A DNA stretch of 23,787 nt from a virus. Numbering within the stretch: position 1 is the stretch's first letter; each line of letters starts with the position of its first letter. Under the pieces are notes generated by a model. It searched no databases. It saw nothing but the letters and a program-made list of their open reading frames with translations, and was not told where the DNA came from. A program made the translations under genes and the position numbers. This document shows positions 5,765 through 19,900 of the stretch, one piece after another. The stretch is from the IMG/VR virus record IMGVR_UViG_3300012005_000053, positions 1-23,787 of that record, one strand, 5' to 3'.

Positions 5765-7248
5765 TAGGAGACCCCTCCAGAGGCAGTTACAACGAGATTA
5801 CCAAGCACGGGGAGTTCCCAATCACGGAAGACCATGTCGGCTGTTCCATACTGCGCTGAGTCAGATCGTACGACAATGGGAATAGTGACATACTGAACTC
5901 CCGCCACACTCATGATGGTGGCGTAGAAGTCCGAGACGGTAAGGCGCATCCCAAAGTCGACGCTAGAGAGACCCATCATTGTGCGTATTGCCTGCTCTAC
6001 GCTGTATTTGACTGCTGCCTGGTTGTACCGTCCGTATACTTGAACAACAATCGGGGTCGCTACCGATCCAACATTCACACTGATGAAGGCTGGACTCGCA
6101 ACAGAGATAGAGCAGCCAGCCAAAGCCTTCCCCGCCAGCACCTTCTGGACGTTAGATACCAAGAGTGCATTGGGCGCAGCCCCGTTGGCTCCGACGACAA
6201 AGACTGTTACCGAGGTGAAGGACCCAGCGACCGCATTGGCCCGCATGACTCCTGGCACTGCAATGGTGGCGTCAATGAAGTCCTGCAGGGTCACGGCCCT
6301 ATTCTGCGTCCGGAACGCGCGCGGCGCATTGGCGCGGATCTGGTCGGTACTCTCCGGATCTGTACCACCGGTCATGGCACTAGACTTGCTCGCTCCCACA
6401 CTATCCAGGGAGATGCTTACTCCGGATACCGAAGGATCAGCGATGTTGATTACCTGATTTGCTCCGATGTTCCCTACCACACCACCACCAATACGGTACG
6501 TGGCATAGATATTCAATTGATTGTTGGGTATTGCGCCGTTTAGGTTATCCCCAAAGGATACCCACGTCGCACCGGCCTCATCATTGAAAGTGGAGAATAC
6601 TTTGTCATTGGAATCGCCATCGACCAAGTAAAGTATCTGGGTCCACTCTTCGGTAGTTTCTCCTGTGGAGTCATACCCCGTTGAGATGAAGAGGTGTACC
6701 GAGCCCTCGATTACTGGCTGATTGGGGATGCGATACTGCTGTGAGGAAAGACCATTAGAGGCCCCCAGTAGTACCATCGAACTTGTCTGGCCCTGTGTGA
6801 CGGGGACGGTCACCTCGCCCCCAACCACCGTGATGGAGGCCTCCGTGTCCGTCTCATAGACGATAGAGTCATCGAGGCTTTCGATGTATCCAGTGACAAC
6901 CGCTGTTCTGGCGGGGATCACGACGGTCGACGGGCCCGGGTTGGCGGAGATGAAGGTCACAGTACCGACAGCGGGAATAGCACTGGAGGGAACATACCCG
7001 AGTAGTTCTGCAATCTGCAGGATACTTAGGCGTTGGGTGGCTGTGGACAGGTAAGCCTCCGCCTGCAGGCGGTCGCCGTAGTAGGACAGAATATCACCCA
7101 TGTAGGAGAGTAACTCCACAAGGACAACACCGAAGTCCCCTTCGGAGCGGCTCTGCCATTCAGGGAACTGCCTGCTGGCATAGTCAAGCAGGGAGGTCTT
7201 GAACCCCTCAAAGTCCTTGGACGTGTAGTCAATAGCCGGAACGCTCAT
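5764..7248 (-). CDS. Baseplate wedge protein, J-like (gp47/gpJ family)
   Basis: The product is 494 aa, close to the usual size of baseplate J-like proteins. The N-terminus has the family signature: IDYTSKDFEGFKTSLLDYA, then EGDFGVVLVELLSYMGDILSYYGDRLQAEAYL. A central TYRIGGGVVGNIGANQVINI matches the conserved Y..GGG..GN motif, and the C-terminal half has the typical ADQIRANAPRAFRTQNRAVT-like stretch and a VAGVQYV segment. In P2, Mu, T4 and eCIS tails this protein forms the wedge ring around the hub and carries the fibre adaptors. The ATG at 7248 overlaps the gp25-like stop as ATGA. The order gp25, J, then fibre genes is the standard one. Confidence 0.93.
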   Translation of the reverse strand: MSVPAIDYTSKDFEGFKTSLLDYASRQFPEWQSRSEGDFGVVLVELLSYMGDILSYYGDRLQAEAYLSTATQRLSILQIAELLGYVPSSAIPAVGTVTFISANPGPSTVVIPARTAVVTGYIESLDDSIVYETDTEASITVVGGEVTVPVTQGQTSSMVLLGASNGLSSQQYRIPNQPVIEGSVHLFISTGYDSTGETTEEWTQILYLVDGDSNDKVFSTFNDEAGATWVSFGDNLNGAIPNNQLNIYATYRIGGGVVGNIGANQVINIADPSVSGVSISLDSVGASKSSAMTGGTDPESTDQIRANAPRAFRTQNRAVTLQDFIDATIAVPGVMRANAVAGSFTSVTVFVVGANGAAPNALLVSNVQKVLAGKALAGCSISVASPAFISVNVGSVATPIVVQVYGRYNQAAVKYSVEQAIRTMMGLSSVDFGMRLTVSDFYATIMSVAGVQYVTIPIVVRSDSAQYGTADMVFRDWELPVLGNLVVTASGGVS

Positions 7249-7664
7249 CCGCGTATAACCTCACTCACAGTACCCCCCACCGAGATGACGGCCGTGTTGG
7301 TGTTCTTTGACAAGGATGATGCAGTAGACGCACTCTCCCTGCGGACATAATCAACGGCGATCTCTGAGACCCCAGACCCTTCAGGATGCACGACAGGGAC
7401 AACCCTCTGGAGGACGACACCCGGCTCATATTTCCCAAGCGCTTCTTTGGCCCGGGTAGCAATACTCTCAGCGACCAACTCGTCATCGGGAGCGAAGAGC
7501 ATCTCCTGCGTGGGAACCCCGTAGTCAGAGAGTACGACCCGCTCCCCTGGCTCGGTGCTTATCAGCGCTCGCACATGTTGACTGATCTGCTTATCCGGGT
7601 CGGCTGTGACAGCGACGGACCCACCAGGGCCGAGCGCGAATGGATGAAGCAGTTCAGTAGGCAT
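7245..7664 (-). CDS. Baseplate wedge protein, GPW/gp25 family
   Basis: The product is 139 aa, the normal size for gp25-like proteins. The family motif is visible: VRALISTEPGERVVLSDYG followed by MLFAPDDE, matching the conserved L.T..GER....YG....F pattern that nucleates the sheath at the baseplate. The C-terminal half (VDYVRRES...) is a short beta segment. The ATG at 7664 has only a weak Shine-Dalgarno (GAGAG). It follows the 589-bp interruption that holds the plus-strand gene, so its transcript must either read through that region antisense or start within it; no convincing minus-strand promoter was found there. Confidence 0.92.
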   Translation of the reverse strand: MPTELLHPFALGPGGSVAVTADPDKQISQHVRALISTEPGERVVLSDYGVPTQEMLFAPDDELVAESIATRAKEALGKYEPGVVLQRVVPVVHPEGSGVSEIAVDYVRRESASTASSLSKNTNTAVISVGGTVSEVIRG

Positions 7665-7733
7665 AGTGTAATTCTCTCAGACAGGCCGTAGTTTATTGGA
7701 CTGGTTGTACCCTCCAGGAGTACGCTTGGTCTA

Positions 7734-7762
7734 TTGACAAACCACGCGCATAGCGAGACACT
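7734..7762 (+). promoter_or_regulatory. Sigma-70/SigA-type promoter for the plus-strand gene
   Basis: A perfect -35 hexamer TTGACA (7734-7739) is followed after 17 bp by GACACT (7757-7762), which keeps the A at position 2 and T at position 6 of the -10 box. Transcription would start near 7769, giving a leader of about 45 nt to the ATG at 7814. It points rightward, against the surrounding operon. The -35 is strong; the -10 is only a partial match. Confidence 0.55.
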
Positions 7763-7813
7763 GACTGACGTGCATGCTCGCAAGGTTGCGGGGCTAGTAA
7801 CAGAGGAGTGGGA

Positions 7814-8251
7814 ATGGGTGCTCGACGAGCGGTTGTAGGTTCGGTGCTGGCTGGTCTGGCTGCGGTTGGTGGTACTGCGACAGTGGTCGCATCCCAGCCC
7901 CCGCCGACCCATGAGGTTCAAATGGTGCAGACCGTCAGGGGAGGCTCATCCGTGCTAAGCCCAAAGCAGTTCACTCCGACTGTGGCCCCAACGACCGCAG
8001 CACCTGCCCCGGTAGCATCAACTCGGGTAGCCACACGTGTGGCCTCCCCCAAGAGAACGGTGGCCATCGTGCCCAAAGTCGTAACTCCCAAGGCCGCAGC
8101 ACCCGCAGTGCCTTCATGGACGCCCCCGGTGCAGTCCCCGGGGCAGCCACCCAACCTGAGCGATGGCCCGGGGACCGCCCCCAATGGCGTCTTTGGTGGC
8201 GGGGCTCCTTCCACGCCAGCCCCCCACCCTGCCCCCGCGCCGAAGCCATAA
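7814..8251 (+). CDS. Hypothetical Pro/Ala-rich exported or membrane-anchored protein
   Basis: The product is 145 aa and I recognise no family. The N-terminus looks like a signal peptide or anchor: two Arg (MGARRAVVG) then a hydrophobic run SVLAGLAAVGGTATVVA, with a possible cleavage site at ASQ. The rest is low-complexity, rich in Pro, Ala, Thr and Val with scattered Lys/Arg, and ends APHPAPAPKP; such a chain would be extended and could span the cell wall. AGAGGAG lies 5 nt before the ATG, which I prefer to the in-frame GTG at 7808. It is the only plus-strand gene in the window, lies between gp25 and spike genes, and ends 2 bp from the converging spike stop. It may be an independently expressed accessory (moron-like) gene, for example for superinfection exclusion or lysis; this is speculation. 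Confidence 0.75.
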   Translation: MGARRAVVGSVLAGLAAVGGTATVVASQPPPTHEVQMVQTVRGGSSVLSPKQFTPTVAPTTAAPAPVASTRVATRVASPKRTVAIVPKVVTPKAAAPAVPSWTPPVQSPGQPPNLSDGPGTAPNGVFGGGAPSTPAPHPAPAPKP

Positions 8252-8253
8252 GG

Positions 8254-9402
8254 TCAGCGCAGCCACATCAGCGTCGCGGTTATGGTCGCCTTGTTTACTG
8301 AGTACGGGCCGAAGTCCTGAAAGAGCGAATGCGCCTGTGCAGCGATAGCCCAGACGGCACCTGGGGTGAGGCCAGTAAAGTGGAATGATCCGGCCGAGTA
8401 TGAGGTGGTGTACCCGTTGGAGCCGGACAGTCCCAGCCCATATGATGCCGATGTCTGCCCTATAAGGGCGACACGCACGCTTAGCAGGTCTGTACCGGTT
8501 CCATCGCTTCCTCCTGAGGTGTTGGGGTTGACACCATAGACCTCAGCAGAGCACGTCGCGAGCAGTTCGTTGCACCCCGGCGGGACAGTAATTGTGGTGG
8601 TGGCCACGTTCGCCCAGGCCAGATCTATCGAGAAGGCTGTATCCGTAAAATTGACGATGCCAGGGATAATTTGGTTCGTCAGTGCGGCATTGTTGATGAT
8701 CCCGGCAGGTAGGGACAGGGTTCCGGTGATCGCAGCATTTCCCCCGATGGTGGTGTCTCCGGTAGCGGCATCAAGATGAAAAGTTTGGGTTCCGGAAGGG
8801 CTCCAAGCCTTGATTCCAGAGTCTTCCGACTTTACGCCTCTATTAGCCAAGGCAGAGGTTTGGATCAGGGCCCCGGTGATAGTCTTTCCGTCAATGGCAC
8901 CCGCGATGATCTTCTCACCTGTTATTGCATTAGCGTGGATCTGGTCAGCAACAAGTTGGTTTACCGTTATGGTTTCGGCATCAATAGAGGCGATAACCTC
9001 GTGGGATAACTGACGGGGCACCCATGTCGTTCCACCCATACCCTCCCACTGGCCAATGAGAGTTCCAGTATCGCTCCTTTGCCACCAAACATCCCCTACT
9101 GAGTTTGGCGTGGAACCAGGGGGATCGTTGGAGTAGGTTATCTTTCTATCAATTAATACGTTTAGAGCGCTCATTCCATTGGCGATGTAGACAGGCTTCG
9201 TTACATCCCCACCAGAGAACTGGACCCAGATAATGTCCCCGAGCCCCGGAACACTGCTGGTAGGGTCTGAAGTCTCAGCCCATTCGCTGTCCGCCTCACC
9301 CAAAACCTGAGGTATACGAAGTATCAGCCTCTGGGCGGACATAGGGTCATTGTTCCGCTTGACCGTAGCCTTGTACATTCCAAAGATTTGACTACCTGAC
9401 AC
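8254..9402 (-). CDS. Baseplate spike protein with OB-fold N-terminus and fibrous C-terminus
   Basis: The product is 382 aa. Residues 1-75 look like the OB-fold of gp5/VgrG/gpV-type spikes (YKATVKRNNDPMSAQRL, then VPGLGDIIWVQFSGGD and KPVYI). Residues 93-135 form a small Trp-rich module (VGDVWWQRSDTGTLIGQWEG). Residues 140-190 are repeating ITVNQLVADQIHANAITGEK / IIAGAIDGKTITGAL segments, like the intertwined beta region of spikes. Residues 235-382 form a beta-rich terminal domain. It would trimerise under the hub and pierce or contact the envelope. The start is GTG at 9402, supported by GGAGG six bases upstream; the gene overlaps the hub gene by 11 bp. The long fibrous C-terminus is more elaborate than that of a minimal spike. 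Confidence 0.8.
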   Translation of the reverse strand: MSGSQIFGMYKATVKRNNDPMSAQRLILRIPQVLGEADSEWAETSDPTSSVPGLGDIIWVQFSGGDVTKPVYIANGMSALNVLIDRKITYSNDPPGSTPNSVGDVWWQRSDTGTLIGQWEGMGGTTWVPRQLSHEVIASIDAETITVNQLVADQIHANAITGEKIIAGAIDGKTITGALIQTSALANRGVKSEDSGIKAWSPSGTQTFHLDAATGDTTIGGNAAITGTLSLPAGIINNAALTNQIIPGIVNFTDTAFSIDLAWANVATTTITVPPGCNELLATCSAEVYGVNPNTSGGSDGTGTDLLSVRVALIGQTSASYGLGLSGSNGYTTSYSAGSFHFTGLTPGAVWAIAAQAHSLFQDFGPYSVNKATITATLMWLR

Positions 9403-10811: not shown

Positions 10812-11590
10812 CGGCCACCCCTCCCCACATTGCTTGCCGAGTACCCGGCGTCAGCCACACCCGTACCGGCCACAACCTCCGCATTGGTTACCGGGAACAA
10901 CTGCATCCCTATCTCCAAGGAGCAACGGTTAGGAATCATCCTTTGCGTGAAGTGCGTGTACGACACATTCGCCGTGGAGATCACCCCATGATATGACAAG
11001 TGTTTTCCGAAGATAACACGAACTGGGACGTACTGCATGAATGAGGTTGGTGATGCATCGTCGATGAGGCTCACGTCTACCGCCGGGGACAGCCCTGCAG
11101 CCAATGCCTTGGTAAATGGGTCTGCCGCGATGGCTGCCCCTGTGGTATTCCCCGCTGGTGCGAACGCGCTAGCATCCCCAAGAATCCCCAACATAGCGTA
11201 GAAGTGCTTTATATCGGCTATCACACCCAGACGACTCGTCTCTACCTGCGAGTTGTACACCCACGTCTCATAGGTACGGTCGAATAGAAGGCTGAACGAA
11301 ACAGTCTGCGACATAGGCATCATCCAGATGCTGGCGTCCAGTGCACTCTGCACCTGCGTGTCACCAATAGTGTCAGTAAGTACGCTTCCATTCCACTGAA
11401 TTCCCGAGGGGTTGTACAAAAAGTTCAACCGGCGATAATAACCATTGACCTTCTCCTTGGCCTCTATTCTCCCTCGGAATAGTGTGTTACCACCCTCGGC
11501 CAAAGGGTTATTTATAGCGACCCCCGGGATAGCCCTGATCCTAGGGTCGAAAGGCGGGTTCTCTACGTAAGCAACGCCATCTGTGGGCAT
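10808..11590 (-). CDS. Tube-initiator/baseplate protein (CIS tube-like, Afp7 N-terminal type)
   Basis: The product is 260 aa. It has a segment with the look of contractile-injection-system tube-type proteins: YRRLNFLYNPSGIQWNGS, then SQTVSFSLLFDRTYETW, and later MQYVPVRVIFGKHLSYHGVI and SYTHFTQRMIPNRCSLEIGM. The F.FNP..i......N, SF.l.FDrT and F.....P.R.....L.. pattern is shared with Afp7/PVC7-like tube-initiating proteins. It would cap the tube at the baseplate, together with the LysM protein encoded next. The ATG at 11590 overlaps the tape-measure stop by one base (TAATG). The family assignment is from motifs and position. Confidence 0.75.
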   Translation of the reverse strand: MPTDGVAYVENPPFDPRIRAIPGVAINNPLAEGGNTLFRGRIEAKEKVNGYYRRLNFLYNPSGIQWNGSVLTDTIGDTQVQSALDASIWMMPMSQTVSFSLLFDRTYETWVYNSQVETSRLGVIADIKHFYAMLGILGDASAFAPAGNTTGAAIAADPFTKALAAGLSPAVDVSLIDDASPTSFMQYVPVRVIFGKHLSYHGVISTANVSYTHFTQRMIPNRCSLEIGMQLFPVTNAEVVAGTGVADAGYSASNVGRGGR

Positions 11591-14487
11591 TACGACACAC
11601 CCTTCGCGATGTCGGCAAGACGTTTATCATTCACGATCGTGTCCACGATCTGCCGACCAACCTGGGTACCCACGGCCGTCGTCGCCCCTGTTCCTAGAAT
11701 GATCTTGATAGATTCTTTTTCGAAAGTGATCATCACGCCTTTGCCACCCAAACCTGTAACTGCAGACATTGGGTTATTCCCAGCAAGGGCCTGACGAATG
11801 GCCTCCGCTTGCTGGGTCGGCACGATCATCTCACCCTTGTGAACTCGCGCGTCTTGATCTACATCGATGTTTGTTGAGCCACTGGCATAGCCCTTTTGGG
11901 CACCCCCCAGGTACTTCTTGTATTCACCATTCTTGTATGTTGACCAATCAGACCAGTTCTTTCCGCCACCTGACATCTCGTAAGCCACGCGGGAGTTGGT
12001 GGCCGTGTTGAACAGGTCTTCATTGCTTGATAGGTGGTACTGCTTAAGACGCTCTGGCCCCATCTTACCCAGCATGTTGATCTGGAACCAGCCATAGGAG
12101 TTGTCACCCGTAGCCGCATTTCCATTGTGGGCCCTGGCATTACCCTGAGACTCAGCCATCATAATGGCATAGGCCATGTTCAGTGAACTACCAGAGAAGC
12201 CCGCCTTAGAGAGCGTGTCCTTAATCGATCCCGAAGGAGCGGTGCTGGTTCCGCCCGTTCCGGCTGCGGCCTTGGTTGCCCCATTTCCTTTGCCACTTCC
12301 AGATGGCGAGGTAACTCCGAGGAATGACCCGAGCGCACCACCAAGGGTGTCCATCTCATTGAGCGCGTTACCAAAGAAGGAGGACGCGAACGAGGTACCC
12401 GCGCTAGAGCCGCTCCCCGTTTTGGAACTTGCGCCATCCGTGTTGGCCACGGCGTCCGTCGACATACTCCCCATTGAGCCGAGGAAGCGCCCAACCGTGG
12501 AGATCTCGTTCATGCTGACCGAGCGGATCCGGACGTTGGTTCCTGTATGTGCAGCCTCAATGATCTGGCTGGAGGAAACCAGCATGGCAACGTGGTGAGC
12601 CCCACCGCTCTTCGCGTTTCCACCGAAGAAGACGAGGTCACCCGGCTGGGCGTCCTTCTTGTTCACGGGCTTACCGGATGTCTGCTGCGCCTGAGAGGTC
12701 CGTGGCAGGTTGACCCCCACCTGCCTGAAAACGTACTGCATCAGCCCGGAGCAGTCGAAGCCCTGCTGAGGGGATGTGCCCCCGTAGTGGTAGGGGATCC
12801 CTAGGTACTTTTTGGCGATGGCTATGACATTCGAAGCCGTCTTACCCGCGCCGACAGTTCCGGTTGCCTTAGCGGAAGCACCACCAGCACGGTCCTGTCC
12901 GGCAGCCGCACCACCTGACTGCCCATCCACCCAGTTCTTCCCATTGAAAGCGTCATTGGAGGGCTGGATACCACCCTCGCCGAGGCCGATAAGCGGTGAA
13001 AACCTCAGGAACTTGGCGTACTTAGCCGCTCCCGCTGCCACCTTCACCCCGGTTCCTACAGCCCCTGCACCCTCACCAGTCACGCGGCCTACCACTCCTG
13101 GAGCAGCCTTCATTACTGCCTTGACAGATTCTCGGCCTGCACTTGTGAACAGCGCCTTCGCACCCGCCTTCGCGAGGAACATTCCGCCCATTGCCTCTGC
13201 TCCAGCACCTATGTTCCCTGCGGTTGGTGCGAGTCCTCCCAGGAACCCCTGAGAGGCTCCGAGACCTGAACCTAGGCCGGTCTTCAGGACTGCCGTCAGC
13301 GCTTTGGAGAATTTGTCAAGCAGACCCGTAGCACCACTAAGTCCCGCGCTGAATGCGTCGTTGTTGGCGTCCAACTGGTTTACCTTCTGAGCGGCCATTG
13401 CCTTCTGATTGGCCAAGTCGGTGGGTGTCAGGCCAATTGATGCCAGTTCAGTGGTAGCCACCTTTCCGGTCGGCGTCTTGTTCGCATACTTGTCAAGGAT
13501 GGACGTGTACTGGTCATAGGACTTGCCCTTTATACCTGCGTTTAGTTCAGCCTTTATCCCCGCGAGTGTCTGGGATCTCAGGTTCTCGTCAATCATCCCC
13601 TCACGCACCATGCGGCTCAGAGACTGCCCAATTTGGCTCGCCTGCCCGGTGGACCGCTCGACGGCTTCCGGGGTACCAGCAAACTTGGCTTTGTTAATGG
13701 CTTTGGTAACAAACTGGTGTGCAAGATCTCGTGGGGTTACTACTGCCCCCCCTTTACCGATCGTGGAGATACCGAACATGCGCAGAGTGTTGAATGTGGT
13801 CCCAGTCTGCATCTGCGACATGGCCCCGGCAGCCGACGCCTGAGAAAGGGTGGGGTCTATCAGACCGGAAATCCGGTTGTAGTTCGAGGCGGTGTTGTAG
13901 CCACTTGTTCCAACGGCGAGGCCCATCCTCTGCACGGTCATCTGCGCCGCTGCCGTATCGGCAACACCCATGGAGGTGTAGTTGTTCTGGAACATTGATC
14001 GAGCGCCACTGCCGTTGACTGCGGTCCGGTTGAGCATGGACGTCGCGGTGTTCATGGTAACGCGGTTGTCCATCTGGGCGATCCCAGCGGATGCTACGTA
14101 CCCTACAGTGCCCGCAATGGAGCGCGTGAGGGAATGCCCCCCATTTCCCTTTTCGGAGTCTCCAGTGCCCCCGGAGCGGCCCCCAGAGCCACCTCCAATG
14201 AGTTCGTCGTCCCAAGCCTTGCCTCTGCGCTGAGGAGCAGGGGGCTTCCCAGGAGTAGACCCGCCACCATTGTCCACAGTAGGCTTGTTACTCCCAGAGT
14301 TCCAGTCTTTGGCAATCCATCCAGCCGCGCTCTTAGCGGAGGCCCCAAAGCCCCCACTGCTTCGCCCCTGCGAGTAGGCGGTTCTGAGTTCCTGGACACT
14401 CTTGTTCAGGCTATCCAGCGAGCGCTGAAGCGTTGCCGTACCGAGGAGCGTCCCGGTCCCTCCGATGGTGCTCTCTTCGTTAGCCAC
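11590..14487 (-). CDS. Tape measure protein with NlpC/P60 and lysozyme-like domains
   Basis: The product is 965 aa. Residues 1-500 are Gly/Ala/Ser-rich and helical with a coiled-coil-like start (LQRSLDSLNKSVQELRTAYS), as expected for a tape measure. Residues about 552-670 are an NlpC/P60 peptidase: Cys579 in GFDCSGLM, His632 in AHHVAML and a third polar residue His647 in IIEAAHTG. Residues about 755-860 are a lysozyme/transglycosylase-like domain with Glu779 in AIMMAESQG and the SYGWFQIN motif. Near the C-terminus, RVHKGEMIVP resembles the G-E-x-V-P tape-measure ending. The protein sets tail length, and its enzymes probably open peptidoglycan during DNA entry. The start is GTG at 14487 with GAGGTGAT upstream, overlapping the chaperone extension by 8 bp. 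Confidence 0.93.
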   Translation of the reverse strand: MANEESTIGGTGTLLGTATLQRSLDSLNKSVQELRTAYSQGRSSGGFGASAKSAAGWIAKDWNSGSNKPTVDNGGGSTPGKPPAPQRRGKAWDDELIGGGSGGRSGGTGDSEKGNGGHSLTRSIAGTVGYVASAGIAQMDNRVTMNTATSMLNRTAVNGSGARSMFQNNYTSMGVADTAAAQMTVQRMGLAVGTSGYNTASNYNRISGLIDPTLSQASAAGAMSQMQTGTTFNTLRMFGISTIGKGGAVVTPRDLAHQFVTKAINKAKFAGTPEAVERSTGQASQIGQSLSRMVREGMIDENLRSQTLAGIKAELNAGIKGKSYDQYTSILDKYANKTPTGKVATTELASIGLTPTDLANQKAMAAQKVNQLDANNDAFSAGLSGATGLLDKFSKALTAVLKTGLGSGLGASQGFLGGLAPTAGNIGAGAEAMGGMFLAKAGAKALFTSAGRESVKAVMKAAPGVVGRVTGEGAGAVGTGVKVAAGAAKYAKFLRFSPLIGLGEGGIQPSNDAFNGKNWVDGQSGGAAAGQDRAGGASAKATGTVGAGKTASNVIAIAKKYLGIPYHYGGTSPQQGFDCSGLMQYVFRQVGVNLPRTSQAQQTSGKPVNKKDAQPGDLVFFGGNAKSGGAHHVAMLVSSSQIIEAAHTGTNVRIRSVSMNEISTVGRFLGSMGSMSTDAVANTDGASSKTGSGSSAGTSFASSFFGNALNEMDTLGGALGSFLGVTSPSGSGKGNGATKAAAGTGGTSTAPSGSIKDTLSKAGFSGSSLNMAYAIMMAESQGNARAHNGNAATGDNSYGWFQINMLGKMGPERLKQYHLSSNEDLFNTATNSRVAYEMSGGGKNWSDWSTYKNGEYKKYLGGAQKGYASGSTNIDVDQDARVHKGEMIVPTQQAEAIRQALAGNNPMSAVTGLGGKGVMITFEKESIKIILGTGATTAVGTQVGRQIVDTIVNDKRLADIAKGVS

Positions 14488-17666: not shown

Positions 17667-18305
17667 CTAATGGACTACGAGGTTTTCAACGAGATGCGAA
17701 TCTTCGACACCGACGGCGATGTCAATTTCTGTGGCCGATGCTATGGCAGCAATGGTCGGGGGAATTTCGGTAGCGACGCGAATGACATAGTGAGTCCTGA
17801 AGACTCTCTTTCCATCATTGTCTTTTGCGGACTCGAACTCCGGGCCACCCTCAAGGAAGAGGCTGCGGACCGTTCCGTCTTCCGGAATTTCCAGATAGCC
17901 GAAGCGCGCGGGAAGGAGTTCCTGTTGAGCCAACTGCGCAACGAGTTCAACGTTATGCTGCTCCTTGCGGGAGTAGACGGTGACCTCGTAGTTGATGTTG
18001 TATGGGACTGGGAACTCAACGTTGTACGGGGATGTGCTGTAGTCCTCCACCAGTGAATTCCATGCGCCCTCAGACTCCGGGGTGTACAGAAGACGAGTCT
18101 TCCCCCGGTGCTCCCTCTCGTCGTCCTTGAGGATGCTCTGGTGCGCGATGACGATCAGCGGAAACGTCATGTTGGCGAACTCTGCCTCAGGCATGCGGTA
18201 GCGGCACAGGACAGGTCGGGCCCCGGCTCCGGCGTTGGTATCGGATACACTGAGGCCAGTCAACTTGGCCTTGAGCGCGGCATCCTCATTGAGAATCCAG
18301 GTCAT
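17667..18305 (-). CDS. Probable tail terminator / tail completion protein
   Basis: The product is 212 aa with no catalytic motif. The mixed alpha/beta pattern includes FPLIVIAHQSI, VPYNINYEVTVYSRKEQHNVEL and FRTHYVIRVATEI; YEVTVYS..., a helix and then a later strand resemble terminator/neck proteins that cap the tube and sheath at the head end. It stands between the stopper-type genes and the sheath, where the terminator is normally found. The ATG at 18305 overlaps the 57-aa gene by ATGA. A plus-strand open frame over the same bases (17649-18056) is judged a shadow. The role comes mainly from position. Confidence 0.68.
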   Translation of the reverse strand: MTWILNEDAALKAKLTGLSVSDTNAGAGARPVLCRYRMPEAEFANMTFPLIVIAHQSILKDDEREHRGKTRLLYTPESEGAWNSLVEDYSTSPYNVEFPVPYNINYEVTVYSRKEQHNVELVAQLAQQELLPARFGYLEIPEDGTVRSLFLEGGPEFESAKDNDGKRVFRTHYVIRVATEIPPTIAAIASATEIDIAVGVEDSHLVENLVVH

Positions 18306-18542: not shown

Positions 18543-19007
18543 TTACGGGGAGAGATGAAGGTCAAGGTAATCGGCAGCGCGCCGAAGTACTTCGGAGGAG
18601 TCTCCCAGAAGGCCTATCCCGGTATTGCAGTTTGCGCAGAGAAGAGAGCGCACCTTACCTGACGCATGACAATGATCCACGGACAGTCGTTTCGTGCTCC
18701 TGCTCTCCGGATGTCCGCATATAGCACAACAGCCTCCTTGGGAAGCCAGCAACTCGGCGTAGTCCTCTTCAGTCAAACCAAATCTTGCTTTTAGGTGGCT
18801 ACGGCGCTGCCCATCTGGGTCACCACCTGTACGGATGTACCTTGCTCTGCTTCTAAGCGCAACGCACTTCTTGCACGCCCACATCGGGAAGGGTCCGTAG
18901 GTCTTCCCCCGCTCATGGCGTAGCCGCATTGTAAACTCTTCTAGGGGTTTCTCGATCTTGCATACGTTACAGACTTTGACGTCTGTGAACCTCCGAGGTC
19001 TTGCCAC
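18543..19007 (-). CDS. HNH endonuclease, recombination endonuclease VII type
   Basis: The product is 154 aa. The N-terminal zinc-binding part has VCNVCKIEKPLEEF and WACKKC. Residues about 75-145 match the endonuclease VII fold: FGLTEEDYAELLASQGGCCA then ICGH, LSVDHCHASGKVRSLLCANC and NTGIGLLGDS. The DHCH with flanking CxxC pairs is the expected beta-beta-alpha-metal site. Such free-standing genes in structural operons are usually homing endonucleases rather than the phage's own Holliday-junction resolvase. The start is GTG at 19007 with AAAGGA 8 nt upstream. Flanking gaps of 67 bp on both sides contrast with the overlaps elsewhere in the neck operon, suggesting a later insertion. Confidence 0.9.
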   Translation of the reverse strand: MARPRRFTDVKVCNVCKIEKPLEEFTMRLRHERGKTYGPFPMWACKKCVALRSRARYIRTGGDPDGQRRSHLKARFGLTEEDYAELLASQGGCCAICGHPESRSTKRLSVDHCHASGKVRSLLCANCNTGIGLLGDSSEVLRRAADYLDLHLSP

Positions 19008-19074: not shown

Positions 19075-19593
19075 TTAGTCGCAGTACTTCGCGAACTGTG
19101 CGTCATTGACCAACTCATCCGGCTTCACCTGTGTGGCCTCGATTGAGACGACGATGTCTCTCCTCTGAATCTGCCCGAGGACATTGATCTTCATGACACG
19201 GAAGACTTTGTTGTCATAAACGATCCGGTCCAGAAGGTAGTCAGCCGTGGCCAAATCTGGGTGTGGGAACCCTGCCCTCGCATACTCCTTGAAACCCAAC
19301 GTAACGTGCAGGTCGTCGTTGTAGTAGAAGCCGGTGTCGTTGTCCTCGTTACCGGCCTCCTCGTGGATAACCTGCAGGCAAGGAAGATCAATCGGGCCAT
19401 TGTAGACGCGGCCACCCTCAGTGCCCTCGTCATAGATATCATGCACCGTCGAAGACTCACGCATGAATCGGAAGTACTCGATGTGGTCGCCATAGCCCTG
19501 CGTGTATCCGCGAAAACCCTCTTCGATCTCGTTGACTTCTTGGTCTGGGCTGAATCTTCCACGTTTCCAGTCAAGCCTAGCCATCAGAATCAC
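19075..19593 (-). CDS. Probable head-tail stopper / neck protein
   Basis: The product is 172 aa, acidic and rich in Tyr and Asp: MARLDWKRGRFSP near the start, YFRFMRESSTVHDIYDEGTE, DDLHVTLGFKEYAR, then YLLDRIVYDNKVFRVMKIN and RRDIVVSIEATQVKPDEL. A long loop followed by beta strands fits small barrel-type stopper proteins. It comes after the connector and before the terminator, where the stopper is expected. I use GTG at 19593, which has AAGG five bases upstream; the ATG three codons later (19584) is possible but has the ribosome site too far away. It overlaps the ParB-like gene by 17 bp. Assignment rests on size and order. Confidence 0.65.
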   Translation of the reverse strand: MILMARLDWKRGRFSPDQEVNEIEEGFRGYTQGYGDHIEYFRFMRESSTVHDIYDEGTEGGRVYNGPIDLPCLQVIHEEAGNEDNDTGFYYNDDLHVTLGFKEYARAGFPHPDLATADYLLDRIVYDNKVFRVMKINVLGQIQRRDIVVSIEATQVKPDELVNDAQFAKYCD

Positions 19594-19900
19594 TTGACCT
19601 TCGGTGAATGATCACAGGGACGGTGGGAACACGCGCAGCAATCGCAGACACCACTCGATGATGACCGTCCTGCATCGAATAGGCTTTCCTCCAGTCCTCG
19701 CTCAGCGGGTTCCAGCCCAGATCATTCTCATGAAGATGGATAGGCTCCTTGACACCATTCTCGCGGATGTCATCGGTCATCGACTGAAGTTCCTTAGAGC
19801 CGACTAGGTCCGACACATGGGCGCCATACTCATGGCTGTAGACGTCGTACAACTTAGCGCGGGGGAACTGCTGCGGGCTAAGGCTGTCTGAGGCAGCCAT
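19577..19900 (-). CDS. Small ParB-like domain protein
   Basis: The product is 107 aa. The second half has the ParB/Srx-type pattern: LQSMTDDIRENGVKEPIHLH followed by YSMQDGHHRVVSAIAARV and VPVIIH. DGHHRV corresponds to the conserved (D/E)GHHR phosphate-binding motif, and the preceding helix-strand fits. Larger ParB proteins bind DNA and CTP; small stand-alone versions in phages are mostly uncharacterised, some annotated as nucleases. Its start shares one base with the connector stop (TGATG) and its end overlaps the stopper gene by 17 bp, so it is embedded in the neck operon and co-expressed with structural genes. Whether it is a virion part, a nuclease or a DNA-packaging factor cannot be told from sequence. 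Confidence 0.75.
   Translation of the reverse strand: MAASDSLSPQQFPRAKLYDVYSHEYGAHVSDLVGSKELQSMTDDIRENGVKEPIHLHENDLGWNPLSEDWRKAYSMQDGHHRVVSAIAARVPTVPVIIHRRSSDSDG

What the first reader, a model, noticed from the sequence alone, without database searches (positions are those of the whole stretch)
7814..8251. Lone plus-strand exported Pro/Ala-rich protein inside the baseplate operon
All other credible genes lie on the minus strand. This one is inserted between the spike and gp25 genes, which are normally adjacent, and has its own ribosome site, an N-terminal signal/anchor segment and a long extended Pro/Ala/Thr tail. That is the layout expected of an accessory gene acting at the host envelope, for example in superinfection exclusion, adhesion or lysis timing.
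Basis: partly seen in the sequence, partly recalled or inferred. Interest (0 to 1): 0.6.

Follow-up and report, generated by a model that had tools for sequence, protein, structure and literature searches.

The report
Antisense exported gene beside phage spike
A small, real but uncharacterised gene for an exported, proline-rich, mostly unstructured protein sits backwards inside the tail-assembly genes of some actinobacterial-type phages, next to a swappable spike tip, and is best guessed to change the infected cell's surface, for example to keep out further phages.

Summary
Window 7814-8251 (+) is the only credible gene on its strand, between the baseplate spike (stop at 8254) and gp25 (start at 7664). 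Homologues in the same antisense position occur in three other viral contigs (L002, L003 and, cut off, L026); the two full-length ones are 56-62% identical. The N-terminal 57 columns show dN/dS of 0.14-0.24, the ribosome site and an upstream TTGACAAA element are shared, and all antisense frames are broken. The protein has a Sec-type signal/anchor, a conserved segment (QPPPTHEV..VQ...SVLSPKQF) and a fast-evolving Pro/Ala/Thr tail with no predicted fold. It matches nothing in Pfam, PHROGs, NCBIfam, PADLOC, PDB, phages, plasmids or bacterial genomes. The gene is patchy: four other lineages lack it at this junction. Wherever it occurs it sits against one type of spike C-terminal domain; phages with other tips (tail-collar, peptidase S74, others) lack it. 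That resembles phage T5 oad-llp, where a receptor-blocking superinfection-exclusion gene lies on the opposite strand beside the receptor-binding gene. By analogy I favour an envelope-acting exclusion gene, but function is unshown. It is a new orphan family of a known kind of accessory gene.

The parts
7814..8251 (+). Antisense accessory gene, 145 aa: signal/anchor (residues 1-27), conserved segment (28-57), Pro/Ala/Thr-rich disordered tail (58-145)
7803..7808 (+). Ribosome-binding site (AGAGGAGTGG-N-AATG context); GRGGAGTGG-N-ATG kept in L002 and L003
7734..7762 (+). Candidate promoter TTGACA-17-GACACT; TTGACAAA and AGCGAG kept in all three homologues, in no other relative searched. It falls below the strict sigma-70 scan threshold.
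7682..8251 (.). Extent of the insert relative to L004-L007 (homology with them stops at 7681); about 570 bp, GC 0.64 against 0.58 for the window
8254..9402 (-). Baseplate spike, OB-fold N-terminus (Phage_base_V) with variable C-terminal half; the gene co-occurs with this C-terminal type
7245..7664 (-). gp25 baseplate wedge gene on the other side of the insert

Best explanation
This is an accessory gene inserted, together with its own promoter region, on the strand opposite to the late genes, and inherited as a block with one type of spike C-terminal domain. It is probably transcribed from its own promoter, possibly before the late operon, and the protein is exported by the Sec pathway. The N-terminal hydrophobic segment either anchors it or is cut after VVA or VAS. 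The conserved membrane-proximal segment plus the flexible Pro/Ala/Thr tail then occupy the cell wall or membrane outer face, where they block or mask the envelope component recognised by the matching spike or used for DNA entry, so that further related phages are excluded and progeny are not lost on debris. Shown here: gene reality, selection, location, patchiness, co-occurrence with the spike tip, and signal-like N-terminus by rule. Inferred: promoter use, timing, export, target and exclusion.
For: Plus-frame homologues with dN/dS 0.14-0.24 over the first 57 columns. Invariant signal/anchor and QPPPTHEV..VQ / SVLSPKQF segments. Conserved ribosome site and TTGACAAA. Absence in four other lineages at the same junction. 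Discordance with gp25 relatedness: L002 and L003 gp25 are 92 and 89% identical to L004, which lacks the gene, and 80-81% to the window, which has it. A search with the spike C-terminal domain alone brought in a new contig (L026), which also carries the gene. Phages lacking it have other spike tips: tail collar (E 8e-17), peptidase S74 (E 6.5e-8) or a long tip with a marginal fn3 match. The T5 record shows a like layout: oad on the minus strand, llp on the plus strand with its own promoter, called a putative early promoter in AY587007. T5-type Llp blocks the receptor of the adjacent receptor-binding protein (PMC9586334, PMC4728585).
Against: No sequence or fold relation to any known exclusion protein was found. 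No lipobox cysteine and no folded domain. The spike C-terminus is not proven to bind a receptor; the window also has downstream fibre-like tail proteins. Co-occurrence rests on three lineages with the gene (L026 and L002 are 93% identical) and may be simple physical linkage. No strong promoter was found by the consensus scan.
Confidence: 0.4

Rival explanations
1. A lysis-timing or membrane-active protein: the Gly/Ala-rich N-terminal helix stays in the membrane and modulates holin or endolysin action, the Pro-rich tail spanning the wall.
For: Weakly hydrophobic, small-residue N-terminal helix that is the most conserved part of the protein, as in SAR-type or antiholin segments (own knowledge).
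Against: The gene is not beside any recognised lysis gene, is absent in most relatives, and carries no enzymatic domain. Lysis regulators are not expected to be tied to a spike-tip type.
Confidence: 0.15
2. A secreted or wall-linked surface protein of other use: adhesion, decoy, or modification of the host surface during infection, unrelated to exclusion.
For: Signal plus extended Pro/Ala/Thr tail resembles wall-spanning linkers; the rapidly changing tail suggests surface exposure or weak constraint.
Against: No LPXTG, wall-binding or adhesive domain; the tail carries no folded binding domain.
Confidence: 0.2
3. A virion-associated or morphogenesis accessory of the variable spike tip (for instance a chaperone or decoration), encoded antisense by accident of recombination.
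For: Strict adjacency to one spike C-terminal type; other lineages carry sense-strand small frames in the same slot (71-94 aa in L004, 48 aa in L020).
Against: Export signal and antisense orientation do not suit a late cytoplasmic assembly factor.
Confidence: 0.13
4. Mainly a regulatory antisense transcription unit acting on the late operon, the encoded peptide being incidental.
For: Conserved upstream element and antisense position within the late operon.
Against: Purifying selection acts on the protein sequence, with third-position excess and dN/dS 0.14-0.24 in the N-terminal part; ribosome site conserved.
Confidence: 0.05
5. A chance open frame in GC-rich sequence.
For: 11% of shuffles give an ORF as long.
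Against: Conserved in frame, start, ribosome site and position in other contigs, with purifying selection.
Confidence: 0.01

Closest known systems
Phage T5 / BF23 llp (lytic conversion lipoprotein) beside oad/hrs
   Same: Small exported protein gene on the strand opposite to the late genes, own promoter, next to a receptor-recognition gene; gene version paired with the recognition-gene version (PMC4728585; PMC9586334)
   Different: Llp is a lipoprotein (acylated Cys) with a folded disulphide-bonded domain of a Gram-negative periplasm; here no Cys, no predicted fold, probably a Gram-positive host; no sequence similarity found; T5 llp lies divergent at the end of the late block, this gene is convergent with the spike inside it
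Ltp of TP-J34 / TP-778L and the Ltp-like gp41 of Cutibacterium phage Aquarius
   Same: Exported phage protein with signal, disordered stretch and role (Ltp) or proposed role (gp41) in superinfection exclusion at a Gram-positive envelope (PMC11480721)
   Different: Those carry a folded C-terminal domain; this one has none, and no Ltp family match
Phage moron genes such as lambda bor and lom, phi80/N15 cor (own knowledge)
   Same: Extra gene with its own signals inserted in a late region, absent in near relatives
   Different: Those are prophage-expressed; this phage group looks virulent; no dedicated terminator found in the 2-bp convergent gap

Membership tests
Moron-type accessory gene | Extra gene between two genes that are adjacent in relatives | tested here: met
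   Present in window, L002, L003, L026; absent in L004-L007, L008, L019/L020, BRock, GiJojo
Moron-type accessory gene | Own promoter and terminator, expression independent of the phage cascade | tested here: inconclusive
   Conserved TTGACA element with weak -10; no strict consensus promoter; one weak terminator-like site at 8276, not above chance
Moron-type accessory gene | Composition differing from neighbours | tested here: met
   GC 0.667 for the ORF against 0.580 for the window, partly explained by Pro/Ala codons
Llp/Cor superinfection-exclusion lipoproteins | Lipobox cysteine | tested here: not met
   No cysteine in any of the three full copies
Llp/Cor superinfection-exclusion lipoproteins | Location beside the receptor-recognition gene and pairing with its type | tested here: inconclusive
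   Adjacent to a spike with swappable tip and co-occurs with one tip type in all four contigs that show it; receptor role of the tip unproven
Llp/Cor superinfection-exclusion lipoproteins | Blocks infection when expressed | not testable with these tools
   Needs an expression and plating test
Ltp family | Folded helical (HTH-like) repeats after the linker | tested here: not met
   No family match; model has only one N-terminal helix, mean pLDDT 49
Sec-exported protein | Charged n-region, hydrophobic core, acceptable signal peptidase site | tested here: met
   Rule-based only: MGxR[RK], core at residues 7-26 (Kyte-Doolittle 1.9), VVA|SQ or VAS|QP in all three; twin arginine not conserved; no SignalP available

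The most novel reading that the evidence does not exclude
A receptor-linked superinfection-exclusion cassette in contractile-tailed actinobacterial phages: spike tip and antisense exported blocker exchanged as one unit, the blocker being an intrinsically disordered, wall-spanning protein of a family not described before.
Probability: 0.27. Interest if true: 0.6.

Novelty: new variant of a known kind. Interest (0 to 1): 0.42.

Why it matters
Exclusion genes tied to receptor-binding genes are best known from coliphages. A conserved antisense exported gene that travels with a spike tip in actinobacterial-type myoviruses would give a marker for finding such pairs in Gram-positive phages and would make the target of the spike testable. 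At the least it is a new, selected orphan gene family missed by every family library searched.

Tried and rejected
The minus-strand alternatives were rejected: every antisense frame is interrupted and none is conserved. The chance-ORF reading was rejected by conservation. Family, structure and homology searches of the protein led nowhere: Pfam, PHROGs, NCBIfam, PADLOC, PDB, phages, plasmids, genome contigs. Structure prediction gave a low-confidence disordered chain, so no fold search was made. The gp25 search of bacterial genomes found no prophage. Rfam and tRNA scans found nothing. Twin-arginine export was rejected because L002 has RK. A wrong frame that I gave for the L003 spike made one family scan fail; the scan was repeated without it.

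Full report
What is there. The window is a 23.8-kb virus record with a contractile-tail gene block on the minus strand: sheath, tube, a tape measure with NlpC/P60 and lysozyme-like domains, gpD-like protein, spike with Phage_base_V, gp25, Baseplate_J, then fibre-like genes. The sheath and gp25 have their best isolated relatives in Streptomyces phages BRock, GiJojo and kin (gp25 34-40%, sheath about 42% identical), so an actinobacterial host is likely but not shown. ORF 7814-8251 is the one credible gene on the plus strand. It starts 149 bp from gp25's start and ends 2 bp from the spike's stop.

Is it a gene? Length alone is not convincing (108 of 1000 shuffles). Two IMG/VR contigs found through gp25 (L003 and L002) carry the same frame in the same antisense place, 62 and 56% identical. 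In the first 57 alignment columns dN/dS is 0.14-0.24. It rises to 0.37-0.66 in the middle and 0.62-1.27 in the tail. The gp25 controls give 0.03-0.16. Substitutions are most frequent in third codon positions over the first 100 columns. The stretch with the ribosome site is 87% identical across the three, and TTGACAAA followed 10 bases later by AGCGAG lies upstream in these three and in no other relative searched. Every antisense frame is broken in each copy. The gene is real and its N-terminal part is under selection.

The protein. MGxR[RK], a Gly/Ala/Val core at residues 7-26, and VVA|SQ or VAS|QP cleavage options in all copies give a Sec-type signal or anchor. Of 430 ATG frames of 80 aa or more in the window and a 44.8-kb relative, only this one passes a simple signal rule (rule made after the fact). 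It has no cysteine, no second membrane segment and no sorting motif. The remainder is a conserved segment (QPPPTHEV..VQ, SVLSPKQF) and a Pro/Ala/Thr/Val tail. AlphaFold2 gives one helix (residues 6-16) and otherwise coil, pLDDT 49 from a three-row alignment, consistent with disorder but not proof. No family library, PDB, phage, plasmid or genome search found a relative.

Presence and absence. In BRock and GiJojo the spike and gp25 are 8 and 9 bp apart. In L008 the gap is about 80 bp. L004-L007 (one lineage) carry a sense-strand 71-94 aa frame there, and L020 a 48-aa one. None of these records has the gene anywhere, though most are fragments. Homology with L004-L007 stops at 7681, so the insert is about 570 bp. 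By gp25, L002 and L003 are closer to L004 (92 and 89%) than to the window (80-81%). The gene's distribution therefore does not follow gp25, which indicates exchange or loss.

Link to the spike tip. The C-terminal halves of the spike are exchangeable between lineages: tail collar in L004 (E 8e-17), peptidase S74 in L020 (E 6.5e-8), a long tip with a marginal fn3 match in L008. The window and L003 share a different C-terminal domain (40% over 208 columns). L002 shows only its last 35 residues (frame). A search with this domain alone brought in one further contig, L026, and it carries the antisense gene too, cut off by the contig end. L026 and L002 are 93% identical over this stretch, so this is three lineages with both, against four lineages (L004-L007, L008, L019/L020, BRock/GiJojo) with neither. 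Physical linkage during block exchange explains this as well as functional pairing does.

Mechanism. The nearest working model is T5 oad-llp. In the T5 record oad is on the minus strand, with llp on the plus strand and its own promoter between them, labelled a putative early one in AY587007. Llp blocks the receptor (PMC9586334), and Llp and recognition-protein versions go together in T5-like phages (PMC4728585). In Gram-positive hosts Ltp acts at the envelope, and an exported protein with a long disordered stretch in a Cutibacterium phage has been proposed to do so (PMC11480721). The present protein lacks the lipobox of Llp and the folded domain of Ltp, so it belongs to neither family. It may work like them. 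Export, timing, target and exclusion are inferred. I put exclusion at 0.40, other surface function 0.20, lysis timing 0.15, assembly or virion accessory 0.13.

Lifestyle. BRock is reported as virulent with no lysogeny genes (PMC7453282). The 44.8-kb relative has DNA polymerase A, RecA and DnaB, and no integrase was seen among the ten proteins scanned. Expression during lytic growth is thus more likely than in a lysogen.

Verdict. A real, selected, orphan accessory gene with a suggestive position. It is a new variant of a known kind of phage accessory gene, and its function is not shown.

Noticed in passing
window 18543-19007 (-): Endonuclease VII-type (HNH) gene between tail genes 17667-18305 and 19075-19593, with no such frame at the matching place in the 44.8-kb relative of L008; probably a mobile endonuclease.
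   Followed up: partly
L004 3105-4134, L020 3-727, L008 2155-4917: The spike-gp25 junction is a variable slot: spike tips swap between collar, S74 and other types, and different small frames follow them.
   Followed up: partly
window 11590-14487 (-): Tape measure carrying both an NlpC/P60 peptidase and a lysozyme-like domain.
   Followed up: no
window 19577-19900 (-): 107-aa ParB-like protein (weak PHROGs match) among head-tail connector genes; a positional counterpart of 111 aa is in the 44.8-kb relative.
   Followed up: no
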